This document shows, piece after piece, positions 3,554 through 18,027 of a stretch of DNA of 64,000 nucleotides (the stretch's first letter is position 1; the number at the start of each line of letters is the position of its first letter). The DNA comes from Kaistella polysaccharea. Its GTDB lineage: Bacteria; Bacteroidota; Bacteroidia; Flavobacteriales; Weeksellaceae. The stretch is taken from NCBI RefSeq assembly GCF_020410745.1, contig NZ_CP084528.1, positions 930,001-994,000 on the forward strand. The letters run 5' to 3'. A program made the position numbers and the translations under genes. Under the pieces are notes generated by a model. That model saw only the letters and a list, made by a program, of their open reading frames with translations. It was not told the DNA's origin and did no database searches.

Positions 3554-5455
3554 ATGAACGCAGATCAAATGTTTAAAGAAAGTATTACGCACAAAGAAAA
3601 ATTCTGGGCAGAACAGGCAGAACAAATTGAATGGTTTAAGAAGCCTAAACATATCTTAACCGACGACGGCGAAAATTACCCAACTTGGTTTGCAGATGGC
3701 GAATTAAACACCTGTTTTCTGGCGGTTGACAAACATGTCAATGATGGATTTGGCGATCAGGTTGCCATTATTTACGATTCTCCGGTGACAAATAGGATTA
3801 TTAAATATACGTACAGCCAAGTTTTAGAACACGTTTCAAAATTTGCGGGCGGCCTGAAAAAATTAGGTTTGGAAAAAGGCGATACCGCGATTATTTACAT
3901 GCCCATGATTCCGGAATCTGTATTTGCAATGTTGGCTTGTGCAAGATTAGGTGTAACGCATTCCGTAGTTTTTGGTGGATTTGCGCCACAGGAATTAGCC
4001 ATCCGAATTGACGATTGTAATCCGAAAGCGATTATCACCGCAAGTTCCGGAATGGAAGTTTCCAGAAGAATTCCGTATTTGCCTTTCGTGAAAGAAGCAG
4101 TTTCGATGTCTGAACATCAACCGGAACATATTGTAGCCTTTGATAGAAAATTATTAGGAAATCGGGTTGATTTTAAAAACGACTCTTCATTGGTTGATTT
4201 TGAAAAGTTGATGACCGATTCTGAATCCACCGAGTGCGTTTCCGTAGAATCTACGCATCCTTTGTATATTTTGTATACCTCCGGAACGACTGGAAAACCG
4301 AAAGGAGTTGTCCGCGATAATGGTGGGCACGCCGTTGCCATGAAATTTTCAATCAAAAATATTTACGGTGCAAATGAAGGCGAAACCTTTTGGGCGGCTT
4401 CCGACATTGGTTGGGCAGTTGGCCACAGTTATTCGGTTTATGGTCCTTTGATCAACAGAAATACGACCGTAATTTTTGAAGGGAAACCTATCGGAACTCC
4501 GGATGCAGGAACTTTTTGGAGAGTAATCGAAGAGCATAAAGTATCCATTATGTTTACGGCTCCGACCGCAATTCGTGCTATTAAAAAAGAAGATCCAGAA
4601 GGAAAACTGGTGAAGAAATATGATTTATCCTCTTTGAGAATGCAGTTTTTGGCAGGTGAAAGATGTGATGTCGCAACTTTGGATTGGTATGAAGAATTTG
4701 TCGGCGTTCCTGCAATCGATCATTGGTGGCAAACAGAATCAGGTTGGCCGATGTTAGGATTAATGCCTGGAGTTGAAGATGTTAAAATTAAAAGAGCCTC
4801 CGCTGGAAAACCAATTCCTGGATATGATATTAAAATTTTCAGTGAAGAAGGTTATGAACTTGAACCGCATCATGAAGGTTATTTGGTGATTAAACTTCCT
4901 TTAGCGCCCGGCGCGATGATGGGAATTTGGGGCGATCCGGAACGTTTTAAATTTGGATATTTATCCAGATTTCCGGGCTATTATTTTTCCGGCGATGGTG
5001 CCATTAAAGATGAAGATGGTTATGTTTTCGTGACTGGACGAGTTGATGATGTAATCAATGTCGCAGGTCACAGACTTTCTACCGCAGAAATGGAAGAAGT
5101 GGTTTCTGCTCACAAAGAAATTGCAGAATGTTGCGTGGTCGGAATTGATGATGATTTAAAAGGTCAGATTCCTTTCGCAATTGCGGTTATAAAATCCGGT
5201 TCGGAAGCGGATGAGAAAACTTTGGAGAAGGATCTTGTTTTATTGGTGCGCGAAAAAATTGGTGCTGTGGCGTGTATGAAAAATGCTTTGGTGGTGAACC
5301 GTTTACCGAAAACGCGGTCTGGGAAAATTTTGAGAAAACTGATTCGGACGATGTTGGATGGAAAGGAATATCAAATGCCTTCGACGATTGATGATGAAAG
5401 TGTTGTGGAGGAATTGCAGTTGAAAATGGATGAATATAAAAAGAAGTATTTGTAA
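3554..5455 (+). CDS. prpE: Propionyl-CoA synthetase (AMP-forming)
   Basis: 633-residue ANL-family acyl-CoA synthetase. Seen: P-loop-like YTSGTTGKPKGV, substrate-pocket motif WWQTESGWP, and the C-terminal LPKTRSGKILRK whose Lys591 is the residue acetylated in Acs-type enzymes. QTESGWP is the form usual in PrpE, whereas Acs enzymes have QTETGG, so propionate (or another short acid) is the likelier substrate. It would form propionyl-CoA plus AMP and PPi in the cytoplasm. It lies between the two-component genes and a second, Acs-type paralogue, and all face the same way. Propionate against acetate preference is inferred from motifs only. Confidence 0.8.
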   Translation: MNADQMFKESITHKEKFWAEQAEQIEWFKKPKHILTDDGENYPTWFADGELNTCFLAVDKHVNDGFGDQVAIIYDSPVTNRIIKYTYSQVLEHVSKFAGGLKKLGLEKGDTAIIYMPMIPESVFAMLACARLGVTHSVVFGGFAPQELAIRIDDCNPKAIITASSGMEVSRRIPYLPFVKEAVSMSEHQPEHIVAFDRKLLGNRVDFKNDSSLVDFEKLMTDSESTECVSVESTHPLYILYTSGTTGKPKGVVRDNGGHAVAMKFSIKNIYGANEGETFWAASDIGWAVGHSYSVYGPLINRNTTVIFEGKPIGTPDAGTFWRVIEEHKVSIMFTAPTAIRAIKKEDPEGKLVKKYDLSSLRMQFLAGERCDVATLDWYEEFVGVPAIDHWWQTESGWPMLGLMPGVEDVKIKRASAGKPIPGYDIKIFSEEGYELEPHHEGYLVIKLPLAPGAMMGIWGDPERFKFGYLSRFPGYYFSGDGAIKDEDGYVFVTGRVDDVINVAGHRLSTAEMEEVVSAHKEIAECCVVGIDDDLKGQIPFAIAVIKSGSEADEKTLEKDLVLLVREKIGAVACMKNALVVNRLPKTRSGKILRKLIRTMLDGKEYQMPSTIDDESVVEELQLKMDEYKKKYL

Positions 5456-5483
5456 ATTGTTTTGTCCAATTACACAAAATATT

Positions 5484-5570
5484 TTAACGCAAAGACGCAA
5501 AGAAATAATTAGGAATGCTGCATAAAATTACGGGCGCGAAGGCGTTTCACTTAGCAAAGAATTGCGAAAA
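5484..5570 (+). repeat. Degenerate interspersed intergenic repeat, copy A
   Basis: Contains TTAACGCAAAGACGCAAAG, then GAATGCTG, and a 19-nt stretch at 5539-5557 (AAGGCGTTTCACTTAGCAA) repeated exactly at 63803-63821. The surrounding blocks occur in the same order there, so these are two decayed copies of one element. The rest of this 410-bp spacer (5456-5865) holds AT-rich sequence and the structured acs leader. Confidence 0.55.
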
Positions 5571-5744
5571 ATGACGACTTGCGCATCTGAAATTTAACTA
5601 TTAAGAAAGATTAAAGAGATTGAGGAGGATTAAGGTTCATCAAAGATGAATTGAGTTGGAAAAATATTTCTTTGGCAAATGCAGGTTTTATAAAACTGAA
5701 TTTTAAATAAACGAAAATTGGGATAAATAAAACGGGTCGTAACT

Positions 5745-5834
5745 AGCCCTGATAGAAGCGGTTACCCCGGAACAAGCGTTGGGAAAAGCCTTGGCGTGAG
5801 GAGTATGAGCGGATAGCAGGTTCCTGGCTCCTAA
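5745..5834 (+). other. Structured element in the acs leader (possible ncRNA or palindromic repeat)
   Basis: A GC-richer island in an AT-rich spacer, 32 nt before the acs start. It begins AGCCCTGATAGAAGCGG and ends GCGGATAGCAGG...GGCTCCTAA. Between these, TACCCC can pair with GGAGTA (one mismatch), and inner segments pair further with several G-U pairs. I recall elements with the flanks GATAGAAGCGG/AGCGGATAGCAGG as common between flavobacterial genes, but could not check. It may be a cis-acting leader, a small RNA or a passive repeat. Confidence 0.45.
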
Positions 5835-5865
5835 ATAAAATTAGAATTAAAAAAAATTAAATATT

Positions 5866-7773
5866 ATGAAAAATTACGTGATAGACGATTTGCCGGACTA
5901 TTTTAAACAGTATAAAAAATCGATTAAAAACCCGAAAAAATTCTGGGATAAAGTGGCCGATGAGAATTTTGTGTGGTATCAACGGTGGTCCAAAGTAGTG
6001 GATTACAATATGGAAGATGCTAAAATTCAGTGGTTTAAAAATGCAAAACTGAATATTACGAAGAATTGTATCGACCGGCATTTGAATGAGCGTGGCGATA
6101 AAACGGCGATTATTTTTGAGCCGAATGATCCGAAAGAGGAGGCGCAACATATTTCCTACAGCGAATTGCGCGACCGGGTTTGTAAGATGGCGAATGTGCT
6201 CCGTGATCAGGGCGTGCAAAAGGGCGACCGCGTTTGTATTTATCTGCCGATGATTCCGGAACTGGCTGTTTCAATGTTGGCTTGTGCAAGATTGGGCGCG
6301 ATTCACTCCGTGATTTTTGCAGGATTTTCGGCAAACGCTGTGGAATCAAGAGTCAACGATTGTGGAGCGAAAATGATCATCTGTTCGGACGGAAGTTACC
6401 GCGGTACCAAATCAATTGATTTAAAAGGAATCATCGATGAAGCCGTAGAAAAATGTCCGACCGTGGAAAAAGTTTTGGTCGTAAAAAGAACCGGCGGCGA
6501 GGTGAACATGAAGGAAGGAAGAGACCTTTGGTTGGCGCCGCTTTATGACAAAGCGCCTTCTGATTTTATTTCGGTGATCATGGATGCGGAAGATCCTTTG
6601 TTTATTTTATATACTTCCGGCTCGACTGGAAAACCAAAAGGAATGTTGCACACCACCGCTGGTTACATGGTTTACACGGCTTATACTTTTAAGAATGTTT
6701 TCAATTATAAAGAGAATGATATTTATTGGTGTACCGCAGATATTGGCTGGATTACGGGACATTCTTATATTTTATACGGACCATTATTGAATGGCGCAAC
6801 GACGGTAATTTTTGAAGGAGTGCCGACTTATCCGGAACCGGATCGTTTCTGGGAAGTGATTGAAAAACATAAAGTAACGCAATTTTATACGGCTCCAACG
6901 GCGATTCGTGCCTTGGCGAAAGAATCTTACGAGTGGGTTGAGAAACACGATTTGTCGAGTTTGAGAGTGATTGGTTCTGTTGGTGAACCGATTAATGATG
7001 AAGCGTGGCATTGGTACAATGATCATGTCGGCAAGAAAAAATGTCCGATCGTTGATACTTGGTGGCAAACTGAAACCGGAGGAATTATGATTTCGCCTTT
7101 GCCTTTTATCACGCCGACAAAACCAACTTATGCAACCTTGCCGTTGCCGGGAATTCAGCCGGTTTTGATGGATGATAAACGAAATGAAATTACGGGAAAT
7201 CAAGTGGATGGGAATTTATGTATCCGTTTTCCGTGGCCCGGAATTGCCCGAACAATTTGGGGCGATCATCAACGATATAAAGAAACTTATTTTACCGCTT
7301 TCCCGGGAAAATATTTTACGGGCGATGGCGCCTTGAGGGACGAAGTTGGTTATTACAGAATCACCGGTCGCGTTGATGACGTGATCATTGTTTCCGGACA
7401 TAATCTTGGAACTGCACCAATTGAAGACAGTGTGAATTTGCATCCGGCCGTGGCGGAATCTGCGATTGTTGGGTATCCACACGATGTGAAAGGAAGTGCG
7501 CTTTACGGTTTCGTGATGTTGAAAGACAGTGGCGAAGATCGCGATAGAGATAATTTGAGAAAAGAAATCAACAACGTGATCTCCGATACGATTGGACCGA
7601 TCGCGAAACTGGATAAAATTCAGTTTGTTTCAGCCTTGCCAAAAACCCGTTCCGGGAAAATCATGCGTCGTATTTTGAGAAAAATTGCGGAAGGTGATTT
7701 TGCTAATTTCGGTGATACTTCTACGTTGTTGAATCCGGAGATTGTGGAGGAGATTAAGAATGAAAAATTGTAA
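5866..7773 (+). CDS. acs: Acetyl-CoA synthetase (AMP-forming)
   Basis: 635 residues, the usual Acs length. Seen: YTSGSTGKPKGM phosphate loop, the acetate-pocket motif DTWWQTETGG, GRVDDVIIVSGHN hinge region and the C-terminal LPKTRSGKIMRR with Lys598, the site of regulatory acetylation in Acs. Converts acetate, ATP and CoA to acetyl-CoA, the high-affinity route for acetate use. It is the last gene of the kinase-regulator-prpE-acs run but has its own 410-bp leader, and a hairpin terminator follows. In Vibrio and Pseudomonas a symporter-kinase (CrbS) and regulator (CrbR) control acs, so regulation by the upstream pair is a reasonable inference. Confidence 0.93.
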   Translation: MKNYVIDDLPDYFKQYKKSIKNPKKFWDKVADENFVWYQRWSKVVDYNMEDAKIQWFKNAKLNITKNCIDRHLNERGDKTAIIFEPNDPKEEAQHISYSELRDRVCKMANVLRDQGVQKGDRVCIYLPMIPELAVSMLACARLGAIHSVIFAGFSANAVESRVNDCGAKMIICSDGSYRGTKSIDLKGIIDEAVEKCPTVEKVLVVKRTGGEVNMKEGRDLWLAPLYDKAPSDFISVIMDAEDPLFILYTSGSTGKPKGMLHTTAGYMVYTAYTFKNVFNYKENDIYWCTADIGWITGHSYILYGPLLNGATTVIFEGVPTYPEPDRFWEVIEKHKVTQFYTAPTAIRALAKESYEWVEKHDLSSLRVIGSVGEPINDEAWHWYNDHVGKKKCPIVDTWWQTETGGIMISPLPFITPTKPTYATLPLPGIQPVLMDDKRNEITGNQVDGNLCIRFPWPGIARTIWGDHQRYKETYFTAFPGKYFTGDGALRDEVGYYRITGRVDDVIIVSGHNLGTAPIEDSVNLHPAVAESAIVGYPHDVKGSALYGFVMLKDSGEDRDRDNLRKEINNVISDTIGPIAKLDKIQFVSALPKTRSGKIMRRILRKIAEGDFANFGDTSTLLNPEIVEEIKNEKL

Positions 7774-7830
7774 GATTGTTGGATGATGGATGTCTGATGA
7801 TGGATATTTTAATCTTGCAATAAACTATAG

Positions 7831-7857
7831 AACCTTGCGGAAACGTGAGGTTTTTTG
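7831..7857 (+). terminator. Rho-independent terminator after acs
   Basis: AACCTTGCG-GAAA-CGTGAGGTT forms a 9-bp stem (two G-T pairs) with a GAAA tetraloop, followed by TTTTTTG. It lies 58 nt after the acs stop and before the next gene. Confidence 0.8.
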
Positions 7858-7897
7858 TTTTGCAATATATTGTATCTTTCTTTTTTTAAACTTAAGT

Positions 7898-8824
7898 ATG
7901 AAATATATTTTCCTTTTTGTTTCGCTATTTCTAATTTTATCTTGTGAGAAAAAAGATCTTACTGATAAAGAAGTATTAGAGATTATTCATGCTGATAAAA
8001 ACTACCAAGGGCTTCAACTAAAAACAAATTTTTGGACTGGTGATAAAGTTATTGATACTATTAAATCTTTCAGGAAAATAATTGTGAAGGAAAATCTAAA
8101 ACCTATATTTAAAGCCGATTTGAAGGGTGATGGGAAACAGGATTATTTAGTAAATTTAGAATATAAAAAGGACAGTGCTAATGAAAATATCGTGAGATAT
8201 ATTGATGAAGATTCTAAAAATTGTGTTGTTTTATTAAGCAGTTCAAATGCTTACAAAATTTTAAGCGCAGGTAAAAAAAGGGTTTACGATATCTTTGCCA
8301 CCAAAATTATAAATTACAAAGGTCAGAATTTGATAAAGGTGTTAAACTTTATACCAAGATTTGATGACTTAAATAATATCCTGAAGTTCGATACCTTAAC
8401 TGTTAAAAATAATCAACTTACAGAATTTGTAAATAAGAGAAGTAACAATAATATTTCAGAAATTAAATTCACCCAGTTTGGAGGTTTTGCACCTGGAATT
8501 TACTACACGTTGACTTTAAAAAAAGATTCGATCATTTTAAATTCAAAATTTTATAAAAAGTTAGAAGGAAAATATCTTGGAAATAACAAGAATGATTTTG
8601 AAAATCTAGCATTATATCTCAATAATATTGATTTCAAAAATTTAAAAGACAAATATTTCATTGACTGTTCCGATTGTTCTGCAATCGAAACAAAGATAGT
8701 GTACGATAACGGAAAAGTAAAAACAAATTACGACTATGGTGAGAAAGGTTCTCTTGGTCTATTAAAATTTTACGATTCTATTCACGCGATAATGGAAAAG
8801 CAGAAATGGCAAAAAATGGATTGA
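7898..8824 (+). CDS. Putative lipoprotein of unknown function
   Basis: 308 residues from ATG 7898. An N-terminal signal peptide ends in the lipobox LILSC (Cys at about residue 18), followed by EKKD, so export and lipid attachment are expected. The rest is Lys/Asn-rich with no domain I recognise. A DxxGDGKQDYLV stretch recalls FG-GAP-like or Ca-binding loops, but only one copy is seen. An upstream in-frame ATG (7790) is rejected because it would read through the acs terminator and bury the signal peptide. Monocistronic. Confidence 0.7.
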   Translation: MKYIFLFVSLFLILSCEKKDLTDKEVLEIIHADKNYQGLQLKTNFWTGDKVIDTIKSFRKIIVKENLKPIFKADLKGDGKQDYLVNLEYKKDSANENIVRYIDEDSKNCVVLLSSSNAYKILSAGKKRVYDIFATKIINYKGQNLIKVLNFIPRFDDLNNILKFDTLTVKNNQLTEFVNKRSNNNISEIKFTQFGGFAPGIYYTLTLKKDSIILNSKFYKKLEGKYLGNNKNDFENLALYLNNIDFKNLKDKYFIDCSDCSAIETKIVYDNGKVKTNYDYGEKGSLGLLKFYDSIHAIMEKQKWQKMD

Positions 8825-8962: not shown

Positions 8963-8982
8963 AACTTTTGTGACTTTGTGGT
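8963..8982 (+). repeat. CACAAAG-type interspersed repeat, copy 1
   Basis: AACTTTTGTGACTTTGTGGT, 20 nt, is identical to 11015-11034 in the same orientation. The two copies bracket the oxidoreductase and methyltransferase genes. A related copy in inverted orientation lies at 10885-10909. Confidence 0.7.
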
Positions 8983-9010
8983 AAAATTTTTTACTACATT
9001 TAAATAAAAA

Positions 9011-10153
9011 TTGAAGAATTCAAATTGCGATGCCGAAATCCTCATCATTGGCGGAGGTTTAGCAGGTTTAACAAGCGCGATACATCTCACGAAAATGGGT
9101 TGTAAAGTCATTGTTATCGAAAAGAATTCTTATCCAAAACATAAAGTTTGCGGCGAATATATTTCCAATGAAGTTCTCCCTTATTTTGATTGGCTTGATG
9201 TAAATATTGAGGAATTAAAACCAACCCACATTACATCTTTACAGTTTTCATCAGAATCCGGACGAACGATTGAAACCCAACTTCCGCTCGGCGGTTTTGG
9301 GATTAGCCGATATACTTTGGATCATGCACTTTATTTAAAAGCCCTTTCGCAAAATTGCGAGATTATTGAAGATCAAGTAAATGAAGTGATTTTTAAAGAT
9401 GATTATTTTGAAGTTCAGCTGGCTTCAGAAAAAATTATAAGCTCGAACGTAGTTTTGGGTGGATTTGGAAAAAGATCCAACTTAGATTTAAAAATGAACC
9501 GCGATTTTTTAAAAAACAAATCTCCTTGGTTGGCCGTCAAATCTCATTATAAAGGAGAATTTGCAAATGACGTTGTGGGTTTGCATAATTTTAAAGGCGG
9601 TTATTGTGGCATTTCAAAAGTGGAAAATAATTTGCTCAATATCTGCTATTTGACTAATTTTAAATCGTTCAAGAAATATAAAAACATTGAAGAATTCCAG
9701 GAAAAAGTCGTGTCTCAAAATCCACATTTAAAAAATATTTTAGAAAATTCCACGTCTGTTTTTGAAAAACCTTTGACCATCAGTCAGATTTGTTTTGAGA
9801 AAAAAGAAAATGTAGAAAAACATATTTTAATGATGGGTGATACGGCTGGATTAATTCATCCCTTATGCGGAAACGGAATGGCAATGGCGATTCACAGTGC
9901 AAAATTGGCTTCAGAACAAACCATAGAATTTTTATCAGAGAAAATTTCGAGAAATGAAATGGAAAATAATTATTCTTCGAACTGGAATAAAAATTTCAAA
10001 CAAAGATTATGGTATGGCCGAATTTTAGGTAGTATTTTAGAACATTCAAAACTCTCCGAAGTTTTGACAAATTTAATAACCCATCTTCCTTTCCTACTTC
10101 CTATTATCATTAAAAAAACCCACGGAAAAGAAATCAATATGATTCAAAATTAA
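9011..10153 (+). CDS. FAD-dependent oxidoreductase (geranylgeranyl reductase/hydroxylase type)
   Basis: 380 residues. Seen: N-terminal Rossmann motif IIGGGLAGL (about residues 12-20), a Cys-containing YPKHKVCGEY motif typical of the geranylgeranyl-reductase/halogenase-like flavoproteins, and the second FAD motif MGDTAGLIHPLCGNGM near residue 277. No ATG fits upstream of the FAD motif, so TTG 9011 is the likely start. It overlaps the methyltransferase gene by one base (TAATG) and stands before a type III PKS operon. In Streptomyces griseus the srs cluster pairs a type III PKS with a methyltransferase and a flavoprotein hydroxylase, so modification of the polyketide ring is a plausible role. 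Substrate unknown. Confidence 0.75.
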   Translation: MKNSNCDAEILIIGGGLAGLTSAIHLTKMGCKVIVIEKNSYPKHKVCGEYISNEVLPYFDWLDVNIEELKPTHITSLQFSSESGRTIETQLPLGGFGISRYTLDHALYLKALSQNCEIIEDQVNEVIFKDDYFEVQLASEKIISSNVVLGGFGKRSNLDLKMNRDFLKNKSPWLAVKSHYKGEFANDVVGLHNFKGGYCGISKVENNLLNICYLTNFKSFKKYKNIEEFQEKVVSQNPHLKNILENSTSVFEKPLTISQICFEKKENVEKHILMMGDTAGLIHPLCGNGMAMAIHSAKLASEQTIEFLSEKISRNEMENNYSSNWNKNFKQRLWYGRILGSILEHSKLSEVLTNLITHLPFLLPIIIKKTHGKEINMIQN

Positions 10154-10863
10154 TGGCTTTAGATACGACGTACAGAACAGATCTTGAAGAATCGATGGAC
10201 GATTTCTCCATGGATAATGATGGATTAGTAACCGCTTTAGATGACATCGCCAGAATTAATCAGTTACTTGGTGGAAACTCGGTGACGTTAGAAGGCGTTA
10301 AAAATTTGATCAAAGATTTCCCAAAAGATAAAACCATCACCATCATGGATTTCGGTTGTGGCAGTGGCGATATGCTGCGAATGTTGTCGAAGTTTGGAAA
10401 AGAAAAAAATTTAAATTTCCAGTTAATTGGTATTGATGCGAATGATGCCACAATTCGACATGCTGAAAAATGCTCATCAGAATTTGAGAATATCACGTTT
10501 TTAGCTGAAGATATTTTTCTGTACGATTTCTCTAAATATAATATTGACATTGCTTTGATAACGCTTACTTTACATCACTTTAAAGATGACGAAATCTTAA
10601 AAATAATGCGTGTCATTTTAAACTTGGTTAAAAAAGGAATCGTCGTCAATGATTTGCAAAGAAGTAAATTGGCTTACCGACTTTTTCAGGCAATTATATT
10701 TATCTTTAGATTAGAAAAAATGACCGCGGAAGACGGATTAATTTCTATTTTAAGAGGATTTAAAAGAGAAGATTTAGAAAAATTTTCAAACGATTTAGGA
10801 TTAAAAAAATACAGCATCAAATGGAAGTGGGCATTTCGCTACCAATGGGTTATTGAAAAATAA
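10153..10863 (+). CDS. Class I SAM-dependent methyltransferase
   Basis: 236 residues. SAM-binding motif I is IMDFGCGSGDM (about residues 64-74), followed by LIGIDAND (motif II) and LTLTLHHF (motif IV region). The start overlaps the stop of the flavoprotein gene by one base, which indicates translational coupling. With the flavoprotein it forms a two-gene module in front of the type III PKS operon, and probably methylates the polyketide or quinone product. A 188-bp spacer with interspersed repeats separates it from the PKS gene, so the two units may be transcribed separately. Confidence 0.78.
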   Translation: MALDTTYRTDLEESMDDFSMDNDGLVTALDDIARINQLLGGNSVTLEGVKNLIKDFPKDKTITIMDFGCGSGDMLRMLSKFGKEKNLNFQLIGIDANDATIRHAEKCSSEFENITFLAEDIFLYDFSKYNIDIALITLTLHHFKDDEILKIMRVILNLVKKGIVVNDLQRSKLAYRLFQAIIFIFRLEKMTAEDGLISILRGFKREDLEKFSNDLGLKKYSIKWKWAFRYQWVIEK

Positions 10864-10884
10864 ACAGCAAATAAAAAGATAATA

Positions 10885-10909
10885 TTAAACCACAAAAGGC
10901 ACAAAGATT
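10885..10909 (-). repeat. CACAAAG-type interspersed repeat, inverted copy
   Basis: TTAAACCACAAAAGGCACAAAGATT is an imperfect reverse complement of the copies at 8963 and 11015; a shorter decayed piece (GACCACAAAAG) follows at 10944. This spacer (10864-11051) holds little besides these repeats. Confidence 0.5.
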
Positions 10910-11014
10910 CTCTGTAAAAAGGCAAATGAACATTATTAAAATAGACCACAAAAGAAACTAAAAATCTATAGATTTTTAACTTATGTGAACTTTTACAGTA
11001 AATATTTTCAATAC

Positions 11015-11034
11015 AACTTTTGTGACTTTGTGGT
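11015..11034 (+). repeat. CACAAAG-type interspersed repeat, copy 2
   Basis: A 20-nt exact direct repeat of 8963-8982, 18 nt before the type III PKS start codon. It contains an in-frame GTG (11022) that would falsely extend the PKS by ten residues. Confidence 0.7.
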
Positions 11035-11051
11035 TAAAAAATATTCAATTA

Positions 11052-12104
11052 ATGAGTGTAAAAATAGTTACCGTTGCTAAGCAACTCCCAAAATATTCCC
11101 GAAAAACTTCCGAAGTTTTGCCTTTCCTGGATCAATGGCTAGTCGATCAAGACAGCCGTTTTGTGCGCAAAGTCAAAAAGATTTTTGAAGGTGCCGCGGT
11201 TGATGAGAGATATTCCATCATGGATCCGATTGAAGTTTTTACGGCGACATCCTTCGAAGATAAAAATGACATTTACGTTCGCGAAGTTGTTTTATTAGGC
11301 GAACAGGTTTTGGATAAATCTCTAAAAAAGGCCAATTGGGATCCGCAATCTTTGGATTACATCATCACCGTAAGTTGTACTGGAATTATGATTCCGTCAC
11401 TTGATGCTTATCTGATCAATAAATTAAACTTACGTCAAGATATTGTCCGTTTGCCCGTGACCGAAATGGGTTGCGCTGCTGGAGTTTCCGGAATTATTTA
11501 TGCGAAAAATTTCCTCCAGGCAAATCCTGGAAAACGTGCCGCCGTAATTGCGGTAGAAAGTCCGACGGCGACTTTTCAGTTGGAAGATTTCTCCATGGCA
11601 AATATTGTGAGTGCTGCGATTTTCGGGGATGGTGCTGCTTGTGTTTTGCTTTCTTCTGAAGAAAATGCAGAAGGTCCGGAAATCTTGGCGGAAGAAATGT
11701 ATCATTTTTATAACAATGAACATATGATGGGTTTCAAATTAACGAACTCTGGGTTGCAAATGATTTTAGATATTGAAGTTCCTGATACCATTGGAGAACA
11801 TTTTCCCAATATTATTCATCCATTTTTAGCCAAACAAAATTTAGAAATTAAAGATGTCGATTATCTTATTTTCCATCCAGGTGGAAAAAAGATTGTTCAA
11901 ATGGTGGAAGGATTATTCTCGGAATTGGGTAAAAACATTGACACTACAAAAGAGATTTTAAGACTTTACGGAAACATGTCGAGCGCCACAGTTCTTTACG
12001 TATTGGAAGAAATCATGAATCAAAAACCGCAGAAAGGCGAGAAAGGTTTAATGTTAAGTTTTGGACCTGGATTTTCTGCACAACGCGTTTTACTGCAATG
12101 GTAA
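11052..12104 (+). CDS. Type III polyketide synthase (chalcone/alkylresorcinol synthase-like)
   Basis: 350 residues, the normal size. The catalytic triad is complete: Cys141 in VTEMGCAAGVSG, His275 in LIFHPGGKK and Asn308 in RLYGNMSSATV. The C-terminal GFGPG-like loop reads SFGPGFSAQ. Such homodimers extend an acyl starter with malonyl-CoA and cyclise it to resorcinols, pyrones or chalcone-like rings. ATG 11052 is chosen because the sequence upstream is repeat DNA. Its end overlaps the next gene by 7 nt, and the following genes encode an enoyl reductase, dehydratase, ketosynthase and ACP. This suggests a dedicated fatty-acid starter and therefore a phenolic lipid; the product is not known. Confidence 0.9.
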   Translation: MSVKIVTVAKQLPKYSRKTSEVLPFLDQWLVDQDSRFVRKVKKIFEGAAVDERYSIMDPIEVFTATSFEDKNDIYVREVVLLGEQVLDKSLKKANWDPQSLDYIITVSCTGIMIPSLDAYLINKLNLRQDIVRLPVTEMGCAAGVSGIIYAKNFLQANPGKRAAVIAVESPTATFQLEDFSMANIVSAAIFGDGAACVLLSSEENAEGPEILAEEMYHFYNNEHMMGFKLTNSGLQMILDIEVPDTIGEHFPNIIHPFLAKQNLEIKDVDYLIFHPGGKKIVQMVEGLFSELGKNIDTTKEILRLYGNMSSATVLYVLEEIMNQKPQKGEKGLMLSFGPGFSAQRVLLQW

Positions 12105-12895
12105 GAAGATTTGAAAATACAAATTACTGGGCGATAATTCTGGGCGGAAGTTCCGGATTAGGTTTAGCGTCTGCCAAAAAACTGGCAAGCGAAGGAATGA
12201 ATATTTGCATCATTCACAGAAATTCTCGGGCTGAAATGGAAAAAATTACTAAAGAGTTCGATTTATTTAAAAATGAAAATATTAAGTATTTAACTTTAAA
12301 TAAGGATATATTAAATCCTATCATACAACAAGATATAATTTTAGAACTAAAAAACACTTTAGGTGTAGACGGAAAAATAAAATGTCTATTACACAGCATC
12401 GCCAAAGGAAATTTGAAACCAATGATCGGAGATAAAAATGAAAGTTTATCAACCGACGATTTCGCGATTACGCTTCAAGCCATGGCAACAAGTTTATACG
12501 ACTGGACAAAATTAATATTCAACGAAAATTTATTTGCAGAAGACGCAAGAATTCTCGCTTTTACAAGTGAAGGAAGTTCAAAACCCATCAATAATTACGG
12601 CGCAGTTTCCGCTGCAAAAGCCGCTTTAGAAGCCATTTCCAGAAATATCGCTCTGGAATTTGCGCCTTTTGGTTTACGATCAAATTGTATTCAAGCCGGA
12701 GTCACAGATACAAGATCTTTTCAAATGATTCCCGGAAGTGAAGAAATAAAAGAGCACACTATAAAACGTAATCCTTTTAAAAGATTAACTACGCCGGAAG
12801 ATGTGGCAAATGTGGTCAGTTTATTATGTACTGATGAAGCCGCTTGGATCAATGGTTGTGTAATTCCCGTTGATGGAGGAGAACATTTGAGTTAA
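12098..12895 (+). CDS. SDR enoyl-ACP reductase-like protein (FabL/FabI type)
   Basis: 265 residues. Seen: cofactor motif GGSSGLG (residues 16-22), LLHSIA near 98-102 as in FabI/FabL, and catalytic Tyr167-x6-Lys174 in NNYGAVSAAKAALEA. That is the Y-x6-K spacing of enoyl-ACP reductases rather than the Y-x3-K of classical SDRs. The C-terminus ends VDGGEHLS. It is most like FabL (ENR III) by eye and would reduce enoyl-ACP with NAD(P)H. It overlaps the PKS gene by 7 nt and is followed directly by the dehydratase. A ketoreductase role cannot be excluded because the cluster shows no separate FabG. Confidence 0.75.
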   Translation: MVRRFENTNYWAIILGGSSGLGLASAKKLASEGMNICIIHRNSRAEMEKITKEFDLFKNENIKYLTLNKDILNPIIQQDIILELKNTLGVDGKIKCLLHSIAKGNLKPMIGDKNESLSTDDFAITLQAMATSLYDWTKLIFNENLFAEDARILAFTSEGSSKPINNYGAVSAAKAALEAISRNIALEFAPFGLRSNCIQAGVTDTRSFQMIPGSEEIKEHTIKRNPFKRLTTPEDVANVVSLLCTDEAAWINGCVIPVDGGEHLS

Positions 12896-13330
12896 ATGAA
12901 TATTGCAGAAATTTTAGAAAAACTACCTTACACTACTCCATTTTTATTCGTGGATGATTTGGTGATTGTTGATGAAAATGGCGTGACCGGAAATTTCACT
13001 TTTAAAGAAGATCTTGATTTTTATAAAGGTCATTTTAAAAATAATCCAATAACGCCAGGAGTTATTTTAACTGAAACAATGGCACAAATCGGCTTGGTTT
13101 GTTTGGGAATTTTTCTGTTTGCAAATGATTTGATTGAGGAAAGTCAGATTGGTTTAACTTCAACTGATATTGAATTTTTAAAACCCGTTTTTCCTGGTGA
13201 AAAAGTGACCGTGATTTCAGAGAAAATTTACTTTAGATTTAACAAGTTAAAATGCAAAGTGAAGATGCTGAATGAACAATCAGAAATTGTTTGTGAAGGA
13301 ACAATCGCGGGAATTATTAAAGTGAATTAA
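12896..13330 (+). CDS. FabZ-like 3-hydroxyacyl-ACP dehydratase
   Basis: 144 residues, a single hotdog domain. Catalytic His46 and Glu60 are seen in the motif GHFKNNPITPGVILTE, which matches the FabZ/FabA pattern. It would dehydrate 3-hydroxyacyl-ACP intermediates. Its ATG follows the stop of the enoyl-reductase gene with no gap, and one base separates it from the ketosynthase gene. It is most likely specific to this pathway, not the housekeeping FabZ, because it is embedded in the PKS operon. Confidence 0.82.
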   Translation: MNIAEILEKLPYTTPFLFVDDLVIVDENGVTGNFTFKEDLDFYKGHFKNNPITPGVILTETMAQIGLVCLGIFLFANDLIEESQIGLTSTDIEFLKPVFPGEKVTVISEKIYFRFNKLKCKVKMLNEQSEIVCEGTIAGIIKVN

Positions 13331-13331
13331 A

Positions 13332-14603
13332 ATGGAAAGAAGAGTTGTCATCACAGGATTAGGAGTCGTTGCACCCAATGGAGTTGGTTTGGAAAATTTC
13401 CGGTCTGCTTTAAAGGACGGTCGCTCTGGAATTCAGTTTGATCAACAATTAGCCGACCTGCAATTCTCCTGTCAGGTTTCTGGAACACCACCCATTAATA
13501 AAGAAAATTTAAACGAATATTTCACCGATTTAGAATTACGAAATTTCAATTCGACTGGAATTATGTACGGCGTGATTGCAGGATTAGATGCCTGGAAAGA
13601 TGCTGGTTTAGAACCTTCCGATGGTGAAAATCCCGATTGGGATAGCGGAACTATTTTTGGTGCTGGAACTTCCGGCATTGAAAAATTTCGGGAAAGTATT
13701 TATAAAATTGATGCGTTTCAAACCCGAAGATTAGGAAGCACCGCGGTTTCCCAAACCATGAACAGTGGAATCTCTGCTTATCTCGGTGGAAAACTAGGTT
13801 TAGGAAATCAAGTCACGACTAATTCTTCTGCGTGTACAACAGGAACAGAAAGTATCTTAATGGCTTTTGATAGAATTCAAGCCGGAAAAGCAAAACGTAT
13901 TTTAGCCGGAAGCACAAGTGATTCAGGACCTTATATTTGGGCAGGTTTTGACGCCATAAAAGTTTGTAATTATAAATCGAATGACGATCCAGAAAAAGCC
14001 TCTCGTCCGATGAGTGCTTCTGCAGCAGGATTTGTTCCCGGAAGCGGCGCCGGTGCTTTGGTGATTGAAGATTTAGAATCTGCTTTGGCAAGAAATGCGA
14101 AAATCTATTGCGAGATTCTCGGTGGAAATCTGAATAGTGGCGGTCAGCGTGGCGGCGGAAGTATGACTGCTCCTAATTCTACAGCTGTTCAAAAATGTGT
14201 AAAAGATGCAATTTTCGAAGCTGGAATTAAAGCTAAAGACATCGATTATATCAGCGGACATTTAACCGCAACTTCGAAAGACAGTACTGAAATTCAAAAT
14301 TTATCAATTGCTTTAAATCGATCCGGAAAAAATTTCCCGTACATCAATTCATTAAAAGCTTTAACCGGACATTGTCTATCTGCAGCCGCAAGTATTGAAT
14401 GTGTGGCTGCAGTTTTGCAATTGTCAGAAAATTTTGTCGCTCCCAACATTAATTGTGACAATTTAAATAAAGAAATTACGGCGATTATCGATGCTGAATG
14501 TATTCCACAAAATCTTTTAGAAAAAGAAATCAATATTGCGGCAAAAGTAAGTTTTGGTTTTGGCGATGTAAATGGATGTATTATCTTTAAAAAATATTCT
14601 TAA
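13332..14603 (+). CDS. Beta-ketoacyl-ACP synthase (FabF/KAS II-like)
   Basis: 423 residues of thiolase fold. The Cys-His-His triad is present: Cys168 in NSSACTTGTE, His310 in GHLTATSKDS and His347 in LKALTGHCLSAAAS. The first His motif is GHLTAT rather than the common HGTGT/HGTST, so this is a divergent subfamily as found in secondary-metabolite clusters. It would condense acyl and malonyl-ACP to build the chain handed to the type III PKS. Spaced 1 nt after the dehydratase gene and 19 nt before the ACP gene. Confidence 0.85.
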   Translation: MERRVVITGLGVVAPNGVGLENFRSALKDGRSGIQFDQQLADLQFSCQVSGTPPINKENLNEYFTDLELRNFNSTGIMYGVIAGLDAWKDAGLEPSDGENPDWDSGTIFGAGTSGIEKFRESIYKIDAFQTRRLGSTAVSQTMNSGISAYLGGKLGLGNQVTTNSSACTTGTESILMAFDRIQAGKAKRILAGSTSDSGPYIWAGFDAIKVCNYKSNDDPEKASRPMSASAAGFVPGSGAGALVIEDLESALARNAKIYCEILGGNLNSGGQRGGGSMTAPNSTAVQKCVKDAIFEAGIKAKDIDYISGHLTATSKDSTEIQNLSIALNRSGKNFPYINSLKALTGHCLSAAASIECVAAVLQLSENFVAPNINCDNLNKEITAIIDAECIPQNLLEKEINIAAKVSFGFGDVNGCIIFKKYS

Positions 14604-14622
14604 TAAATTTCAATTCTAAAAT

Positions 14623-14877
14623 ATGAACAAGGAAGAGGCTATTCAAAAACTAAAAGAAATCGTAAAACCTTATGTGAAAAATGAGGACGCTTTAGCAAAC
14701 ATCAACGAAAATACCGATTTCATCAACGATTTAAATATTAATTCGGCCAATTTGGTTGATGTAATTTTAGATGTAGAAGAAGTTTTTGATATTGAAATCG
14801 ATGCAGATTCTATGGAGAAAATGCGCGATGTAAAATCTGCACTAGCGGTGATTGAAGAAAAGCTAACGACAAAATAA
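14623..14877 (+). CDS. Acyl carrier protein
   Basis: 84 residues, acidic. The phosphopantetheine Ser is probably Ser41 in DLNINSANLVDV, where the usual DSL is replaced by NSA; the helix II pattern VILDVEEVFDIEI follows as in ACPs. It is the last biosynthetic gene of the operon and would carry the chain for the neighbouring ketosynthase, dehydratase and reductase. The unusual attachment motif suggests a dedicated carrier distinct from AcpP. Confidence 0.85.
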   Translation: MNKEEAIQKLKEIVKPYVKNEDALANINENTDFINDLNINSANLVDVILDVEEVFDIEIDADSMEKMRDVKSALAVIEEKLTTK

Positions 14878-14953: not shown

Positions 14954-15607
14954 ATGAAATTTTTTATCGACACGGCTAATCTGGAGCAAATAAAAGAAGC
15001 ACAAGATTTAGGAATTTTAGATGGAGTTACCACCAATCCATCATTAATGGCCAAAGAAGGAATCAGCGGAAAAGAAGCAATTCTAAACCATTACAAAACC
15101 ATTTGCGAAATTGTTGACGGCGATATATCTGCAGAAGTTTTGAGCACTACTTATGAAGAAATGATCAAGGAAGGTGATGAACTTGCTGCTATTCATCCGA
15201 ATATTGTAGTTAAAATTCCGATGATTAAAGACGGGATTAAAGCATTAAAATATTTTTCAAATAAAGGAATCAAAACCAACTGTACTTTGATCTTTTCTGC
15301 TGGGCAGGCTTTATTAGCAGCGAAAGCAGGAGCAAATTATGTTTCTCCATTTTTAGGAAGATTAGACGATATTTCGGTGGATGGTATGAATTTAATCGAA
15401 GAAATCAGAATTATTTTTGATAATTATATGTTCGATACAGAAATTCTTGCAGCGTCGATCCGTTCGCCAATGCACATTATCAACTGTGCAAAAATCGGTG
15501 CAGATGTAATTACTTCACCATTAGATTCAATTTTAAATTTATTAAATCACCCTTTGACTGATAAAGGTTTGGCGCAGTTTGTTGCTGATGCTAAAAAAAT
15601 GGGATAA
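14954..15607 (+). CDS. Transaldolase / fructose-6-phosphate aldolase family
   Basis: 217 residues, the short TalC/FSA-type (beta/alpha)8 barrel. Seen: [13 protein letters not shown] start, [13 protein letters not shown], the Schiff-base Lys in VVKIPMI (about residue 84) and [13 protein letters not shown]. It acts in the non-oxidative pentose phosphate pathway as transaldolase, or as an F6P aldolase; the two cannot be told apart here. It lies 76 nt after the ACP gene, so it may be only a neighbour of the PKS operon. A strong terminator follows. Confidence 0.85.
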
Positions 15608-17464: not shown

Positions 17465-17710
17465 ATGGAAATTTCAGTCATCAATATTGGAAATTCAAAA
17501 GGAATACGACTTTCAAAAACAATACTGGAGAAATATAATATCCAGGATAAAGTTGAAATTACTTTGGAGAAAGGATATATCATTTTAAAACCTAAAACAG
17601 AACCGCGAAAAAATTGGGAAAATTCTTTCAAAAAAATGCATGAAATTGGTGATGACAAAATTCTCATAGACGACATTTTTGAAGATGAAGATTTTGAAGA
17701 ATGGAATTGA
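17465..17710 (+). CDS. mazE: MazE-like antitoxin (AbrB/SpoVT fold)
   Basis: 81 residues. The N-terminal half SVINIGNSKGIRLSKTILEKY is a typical AbrB/MazE swapped-hairpin DNA-binding domain. The acidic C-terminal tail (DDIFEDEDFEEW) is the kind that wraps and blocks MazF. It overlaps the toxin gene by 10 nt. It should neutralise the toxin and, with it, repress their own promoter. Confidence 0.85.
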   Translation: MEISVINIGNSKGIRLSKTILEKYNIQDKVEITLEKGYIILKPKTEPRKNWENSFKKMHEIGDDKILIDDIFEDEDFEEWN

Positions 17711-18027
17711 TTCAACAATACACAATAGTTTTAGTAAGTCTCGATCCCACTTTGGGAAGCGAGATTAATAAAACTCGACCTTGCGTAGTAATATCACCTA
17801 ATGAATTAAATAAACATTTAAGAACAATTGTCATCGCACCAATTACCAGCACTTCAAAATCTTACCCAACTCGAATTCCAATTTCTGGCAAAATAACAAA
17901 AGGCTGGATTGTGGTAGACCAAATACGAGTCATTGATCGACGAAGAGTAATAAAATCTTTTGGAAATTTAAAAGAAGAAGAAATTATAGCATTGAAAGCG
18001 GTTATAAAAGAAACCTATGTAGATTAA
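17701..18027 (+). CDS. mazF: MazF/PemK-family endoribonuclease toxin
   Basis: 108 residues. The family hallmarks are VSLDPTLGSEINKTRPCVVISPNE, where NKTRPCVV is the conserved catalytic Arg/Pro region, and the C-terminal VVDQIRVIDRRRVIK. It would cleave mRNA at short sequence-specific sites when the antitoxin is lost. It is translationally coupled to mazE by overlap. It faces a tRNA-Arg gene across a two-way terminator. Confidence 0.9.
   Translation: MELIQQYTIVLVSLDPTLGSEINKTRPCVVISPNELNKHLRTIVIAPITSTSKSYPTRIPISGKITKGWIVVDQIRVIDRRRVIKSFGNLKEEEIIALKAVIKETYVD

What the first reader, a model, noticed from the sequence alone, without database searches (positions are those of the whole stretch)
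9011..14877. Type III PKS operon with its own fatty-acid enzymes and tailoring pair
Seen: flavoprotein, methyltransferase, type III PKS with intact Cys-His-Asn, FabL-like reductase, FabZ-like dehydratase, ketosynthase and ACP, tightly spaced or overlapping from the PKS onward. Known: srsABC of Streptomyces makes methylated, hydroxylated alkylresorcinols with a type III PKS, methyltransferase and flavoprotein. Inferred: a phenolic lipid or alkylquinone built on a starter made in the same operon. This combination, with a dedicated ACP feeding a type III PKS, is not one I can match to a characterised product.
Basis: partly seen in the sequence, partly recalled or inferred. Interest (0 to 1): 0.65.

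Follow-up and report, generated by a model that had tools for sequence, protein, structure and literature searches.

The report
Phenolic-lipid operon with built-in fatty-acid cassette
Seven neighbouring genes in a Kaistella bacterium (a flavobacterium relative) probably make an unidentified waxy phenol or quinone lipid: a small, movable fatty-acid-making cassette appears to build the tail for a chalcone-synthase-type enzyme that makes the ring, an uncharacterised arrangement that is nevertheless widespread in this group of bacteria.

Summary
A seven-gene block (flavoprotein, methyltransferase, type III PKS, FabL-like enoyl reductase, FabZ-like dehydratase, FabF-like ketosynthase, ACP) lies at 9011-14877 in a Kaistella genome, with all catalytic residues checked present. 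It is one unit: sister genomes lacking it have acs directly next to the transaldolase gene. In 395 Bacteroidota genomes the PKS ortholog and its ketosynthase occur in the same 33. The core is present in all 80 named relatives (Kaistella, Halpernia, Flavobacterium), except two ACPs lost at contig ends. The genome has only one other FabF and one other ACP (housekeeping), so this set is dedicated. Two parts with separate histories are visible. The PKS-MT-flavoprotein trio is an old phenolic-lipid/quinone type also found without fatty-acid genes. The reductase-dehydratase-ketosynthase-ACP cassette also occurs without this PKS, beside DarB in dialkylresorcinol-type clusters and in a polysaccharide cluster, so it most likely makes an acyl-ACP. 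Best reading: the cassette supplies an acyl starter to the PKS, and the tailoring pair hydroxylates and methylates the ring. Product, ring type, direct ACP-to-PKS transfer and biological role are untested. ACP-fed type III PKSs have precedents (ArsA/ArsB, CylI, germicidin synthase). New variant of a known kind.

The parts
9011..10153 (+). FAD-dependent oxidoreductase/monooxygenase (geranylgeranyl-reductase superfamily), TTG start; predicted ring hydroxylase
   Evidence: orthologs in all 80 named loci; same family beside other type III PKSs
10153..10863 (+). class I SAM methyltransferase (NF004851-like, below cut-off); predicted O- or C-methylation of the phenol
11052..12104 (+). type III polyketide synthase; ORF listed from GTG 11022, conserved start is ATG 11052; Cys151, His285, Asn318 (numbered from 11022); Phe245 at the ArsB Trp281 position
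   Evidence: AlphaFold model pLDDT 92.5 nearest Pks11 and CylI
12098..12895 (+). SDR, FabL-like enoyl-ACP reductase (Y-x6-K)
   Evidence: in Weeksellaceae, f60 and f10 loci, absent in nearly all Flavobacterium
12896..13330 (+). FabZ-like 3-hydroxyacyl-ACP dehydratase
13332..14603 (+). FabB/FabF-like ketosynthase, about 31% identical to the housekeeping FabF of the same genome
14623..14877 (+). acyl carrier protein, second of only two in the genome by PF00550

Best explanation
A phenolic-lipid (alkylresorcinol/alkylquinol class) biosynthetic operon in which a dedicated type II fatty-acid cassette makes the acyl starter for a type III PKS. Likely course: (1) ACP is activated by a phosphopantetheinyl transferase (in the operon in Flavobacterium, elsewhere here); (2) KS, DH and the FabL-like reductase, with a borrowed ketoreductase (FabG) and malonyl transferase, build or extend an acyl chain on this ACP; (3) the type III PKS takes the acyl group from the ACP, adds about three malonyl units and cyclises to a resorcinol or pyrone; (4) flavoprotein and methyltransferase hydroxylate and methylate the ring to a membrane phenolic lipid or quinone. 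Shown here: the gene set, catalytic residues, one heritable unit, a dedicated cassette, independent occurrence of the cassette, conserved trio. Inferred: direction of flow, direct ACP hand-off, ring type, tailoring order, role.
For: One unit: empty sites acs-tal in sister genomes, matched presence in 33/33 Bacteroidota genomes, conserved order in 80/80 named loci, correlated divergence of PKS, MT, KS, DH. Dedicated: one other FabF-type KS and one other ACP in the genome, adjacent to each other as housekeeping acpP-fabF. The cassette makes an acyl-ACP rather than acting on the PKS product: close cassettes (KS 49-58% identical) exist without this PKS, beside DarB (scores above NCBIfam cut-off) and in a polysaccharide cluster. 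Flavobacterium adds a PPTase directly after ACP in 63 loci. The trio recurs without the cassette in other Bacteroidota and in Paracoccus. PKS model is nearest Pks11 and CylI, both long-chain enzymes. Trio biochemistry: planctomycete, hierridin and polyketide-quinone operons (PMC10896814, PMC8086630, PMC9927152).
Against: No ketoreductase, transacylase or FabH in the operon; the reductase is missing in most Flavobacterium, so a complete private cycle is not encoded. Direct ACP-to-PKS transfer is untested. Similarity to Pks11/CylI is about 30% identity, too low to fix substrate or ring type. No product is known for any member found in the papers searched.
Confidence: 0.65

Rival explanations
1. 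Reverse flow: the type III PKS makes a small aromatic acyl-CoA (as DpgA makes 3,5-dihydroxyphenylacetyl-CoA) that the KS/DH/reductase/ACP cassette then extends into an aryl-fatty chain.
For: The best curated match of the PKS by score is DpgA (164 bits, cut-off 425). Aryl-polyene pathways do extend aromatic starters on an ACP.
Against: Below the DpgA cut-off and no DpgB/C/D genes nearby. The cassette occurs without any type III PKS beside it. No ligase or transferase to load an aryl group on the ACP. Nearest folds are long-chain enzymes.
Confidence: 0.1
2. The PKS uses ordinary acyl-CoA or housekeeping acyl-ACP, and the cassette makes a different lipid or serves both; they are neighbours but not one assembly line.
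For: Planctomycete type III PKSs with the same tailoring pair are thought to work from CoA starters in a heterologous host (PMC10896814). The cassette exists on its own.
Against: Same 33 genomes for both parts, single insertion/deletion site for all seven genes, no cassette-free copy of this PKS clade seen in 80 named loci.
Confidence: 0.2
3. The product is specifically an alternative respiratory quinone (polyketide quinone), rather than a protective or antagonistic phenolic lipid (a sub-case of the best explanation).
For: Trio resembles pkqABC of actinobacteria, where PKS, methyltransferase and oxidoreductase give a polyketide quinone (PMC9927152); the closest solved fold is Pks11. Other Bacteroidota trios sit with a UbiA-like prenyltransferase.
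Against: Patchy within the genus (12 of 21 genomes), unusual for an important respiratory carrier; no regulatory or redox evidence. The same trio also makes non-quinone hierridins.
Confidence: 0.15

Closest known systems
Hierridin operon hidA-hidB-hidC (cyanobacteria) and planctomycete methyltransferase-oxidoreductase-type III PKS operons
   Same: Type III PKS with methyltransferase and oxidoreductase; long alkyl starter; methylated alkylresorcinols (PMC8086630, PMC10896814)
   Different: No dedicated reductase, dehydratase, ketosynthase and ACP; gene order differs
Polyketide quinone operon pkqABC (mycobacteria, Streptomyces) and srsABC
   Same: Same three enzyme kinds (PMC9927152; srsABC from general knowledge)
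   Different: No type II fatty-acid cassette; here Phe replaces the Trp281 of ArsB that PkqA keeps
Azotobacter arsABCD
   Same: Phenolic lipids made by type III PKSs fed by a dedicated fatty acid synthase through its ACP (PMC6274091)
   Different: ArsA is a type I (multidomain) FAS; here discrete type II enzymes, plus methyltransferase and flavoprotein
Cylindrocyclophane CylB/CylD/CylH-CylI and Streptomyces germicidin synthase
   Same: ACP-bound chain passed to a type III PKS; CylI is among the nearest folds
   Different: In the cyl pathway type I PKS modules supply the chain; in Streptomyces no dedicated cassette is described in the sources read
Dialkylresorcinol/flexirubin clusters (DarB)
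   Same: In two Bacteroidota genomes the related SDR-DH-KS cassette (with ACP and PPTase seen in one) lies next to DarB
   Different: Ring made by DarA/DarB, not a type III PKS; KS about 52% identical

Membership tests
Type III polyketide synthase (chalcone/stilbene synthase superfamily) | CHS-like fold and Cys-His-Asn catalytic triad | tested here: met
   Pfam PF00195/PF02797 above cut-off; triad invariant; model Z 52 to Pks11
Type III polyketide synthase (chalcone/stilbene synthase superfamily) | Makes polyketide from acyl thioester and malonyl-CoA | not testable with these tools
   Needs purified enzyme
hid/srs/pkq-type phenolic lipid operon | Type III PKS adjacent to SAM methyltransferase and flavoprotein oxidoreductase | tested here: met
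   same protein families beside other type III PKSs, one annotated so in Paracoccus
hid/srs/pkq-type phenolic lipid operon | Direct homology of MT and flavoprotein to HidA/HidB, SrsB/SrsC or PkqB/PkqC | not tested
   Reference sequences were not obtained
hid/srs/pkq-type phenolic lipid operon | Product is a methylated or oxidised alkylresorcinol/quinone | not testable with these tools
   Needs mass spectrometry
ArsB-like alkylresorcinol (aldol) synthase | Trp at ArsB 281 (Gly in pyrone-forming ArsC) | tested here: inconclusive
   Phe245 at this position in the whole ortholog clade, Trp in the other 18 Bacteroidota type III PKSs aligned (position mapped through the alignment and CHS numbering from memory); bulky but not Trp
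DpgA (3,5-dihydroxyphenylacetyl-CoA synthase) | NCBIfam NF042429 above curated cut-off | tested here: not met
   164 bits against cut-off 425
FabL-type enoyl-ACP reductase | SDR with Y-x6-K motif and curated FabL score | tested here: inconclusive
   Motif present but NF005975 136.6 bits against 328
Complete type II fatty-acid synthase cycle in the operon | KS, KR, DH, ER and ACP all encoded | tested here: not met
   No KR-type SDR in the operon; ER missing in most Flavobacterium

The most novel reading that the evidence does not exclude
An interchangeable acyl-ACP-making cassette (FabL-like reductase, dehydratase, ketosynthase, ACP, PPTase) has been plugged in Bacteroidota into at least three acceptor systems (type III PKS, DarB ring synthase, surface polysaccharide), and in Kaistella/Flavobacterium it feeds a type III PKS directly through its own type II ACP to make an undescribed methylated phenolic lipid or second membrane quinone.
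Probability: 0.25. Interest if true: 0.65.

Novelty: new variant of a known kind. Interest (0 to 1): 0.45.

Why it matters
Type III PKS clusters are about a tenth of predicted natural-product clusters in Flavobacteriaceae/Weeksellaceae (PMC10734526; 9% in PMC7440613), and no product of this one was found in the papers searched. The operon shows where the starter chain probably comes from and gives a compact, testable system for ACP-to-type III PKS hand-off with free-standing enzymes. If the product is a quinone, these bacteria would have a second redox lipid beside menaquinone (general knowledge of the group, not tested here).

Tried and rejected
DpgA-like aromatic starter pathway: below cut-off and no partner genes. 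acs genes as part of the operon: ACS2 is upstream in many loci but is also present at the empty site, so it is a neighbour. Transaldolase (14954-15607) as part: it stays when the operon is absent. Upstream DUF6438 gene (7790-8824): the space between ACS2 and the flavoprotein gene is only about 360 bp in the closest relatives. PKS active-site residue as proof of resorcinol versus pyrone: inconclusive. Plasmid records gave only distant matches. Paper searches for this exact operon or a Kaistella type III PKS gave nothing.

Full report
Setting. The window lies at 930001-994000 of a single-contig 2.69 Mb genome. The named relatives with the closest PKS are Kaistella antarctica, K. gelatinilytica and K. 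jeonii (98-99% identity), so the genome is a Kaistella (Weeksellaceae); this is an inference from similarity.

Observation. All seven genes exist as described. Catalytic residues are conserved in PKS, KS, DH and ACP over 77-81 relatives and the PKS triad over 35 diverse type III PKSs. The conserved PKS start is ATG 11052. The GTG at 11022 and the 188 bp between MT and PKS belong to an insertion carrying an interspersed repeat, CTTTTGTGACTTTGTGGT, found 9 times in the genome with up to one mismatch. It is also present in K. yonginensis (L066).

One unit. Core order FAD-MT-PKS-(SDR)-DH-KS-ACP is found in all 80 named loci; the two without ACP end at a contig end. SDR is in 16 of them (15 Weeksellaceae-type loci and one Flavobacterium), and is also present in more distant f60 and f10 loci, so loss in Flavobacterium is the simplest reading. 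Flavobacterium loci instead have a phosphopantetheinyl transferase gene, right after ACP where inspected (63 loci; weak TIGR00556 match). In a sample of 395 Bacteroidota genomes, PKS orthologs (67% identity or more) and the KS (59% or more) occur in exactly the same 33 genomes. In 21 sampled genomes of the genus, 12 have the PKS, and KS of 75% or more is in the same 12. In five PKS-negative sister genomes (L214-L217, L219) acs and transaldolase are neighbours, with at most a small gene or two between. Pairwise divergences of PKS, MT, KS and DH are strongly correlated (Spearman 0.76-0.91); FAD less (0.66-0.74) and the short ACP least (0.47-0.56). Shared ancestry of the genomes alone gives some of this correlation.

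Dedicated fatty-acid enzymes. The genome has one other FabF-type KS, 31% identical, beside the only other PF00550 ACP, the housekeeping pair. The SDR has six other relatives in the genome, all 34% identical or less. The operon lacks a ketoreductase, malonyl transacylase and FabH; these must come from primary metabolism (inference).

Two parts with separate histories. (a) The PKS-MT-flavoprotein trio occurs without KS, DH or ACP beside more distant type III PKSs in other Bacteroidota (L156-L158, L165, L166; profile matches), several with a UbiA-like prenyltransferase, and in Paracoccus. (b) The cassette occurs without this PKS: ACP-SDR-DH-KS-PPTase in a polysaccharide cluster of a sister genome (L163), SDR-DH-KS(-ACP-PPTase) beside DarB in two genomes (L208, L209; DarB 634.8 and 614.7 bits, cut-off 550), and (SDR-)DH-KS-ACP with a glycosyltransferase-like gene and a conserved 378-aa protein in a third group (L210-L212; these two named by eye). 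A KS tree puts the DarB-linked and L210-L212 KSs on one supported branch and leaves the polysaccharide-linked KS among the type III-linked ones with an unresolved position; the outgroup branch is very long, so the root and direction of transfer are not settled.

Mechanism. Because the cassette also serves settings with no type III PKS, its common output is most simply an acyl-ACP, which makes it the probable starter source here. Direct transfer to the PKS is inferred; it is documented for ArsA to ArsB/ArsC and for germicidin synthase (PMC6274091) and described for CylI (PMC8086630). The PKS model (pLDDT 92.5) is nearest Pks11 (Z 52.2, 30% identity) and CylI (Z 48.8, 27%), enzymes acting on long chains. 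The ArsB Trp281/ArsC Gly284 switch position holds Phe in this clade, which leaves resorcinol versus pyrone open. Flavoprotein and methyltransferase match the kind used after resorcinol formation in hierridin, planctomycete and polyketide-quinone operons.

Novelty. The parts and the principle are known; the combination of an hid/srs/pkq-type trio with a discrete type II cassette shared with DarB clusters was not found described in the papers searched, a library that lacks most subscription journals. Such clusters are counted as T3PKS in genome surveys.

Noticed in passing
window 8964-8985 and 11016-11037: Interspersed repeat CTTTTGTGACTTTGTGGT, 9 genome copies with up to 1 mismatch, some as inverted pairs about 120-260 bp apart (MITE/REP-like); one copy splits MT from PKS, one lies just upstream of the operon.
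   Followed up: partly
L163:7903-11257: ACP-SDR-DH-KS-PPTase cassette inside a glycosyltransferase/polysaccharide cluster of a sister genome that lacks the type III PKS; suggests an acylated surface polysaccharide.
   Followed up: partly
L208:9197-14610 and L209:8155-14335: The same cassette type next to DarB in dialkylresorcinol-type clusters.
   Followed up: partly
L156, L157, L158, L166: Other Bacteroidota type III PKS-MT-flavoprotein clusters carry a UbiA-like prenyltransferase gene (one scanned, the others by eye) and no fatty-acid genes nearby.
   Followed up: no
L072:10937-12019, L073:10888-11973, L075:10915-11997: An old-yellow-enzyme-like gene (by eye) on the opposite strand is inserted between SDR and DH in several Weeksellaceae loci.
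   Followed up: no
window 17465-18027: AbrB-like and MazF/PemK-like gene pair, a probable toxin-antitoxin module (by eye).
   Followed up: no
window 3554-7773: Two adjacent acetyl-CoA-synthetase-like genes; the second is upstream of the operon in many Flavobacterium loci too, and remains when the operon is absent.
   Followed up: partly
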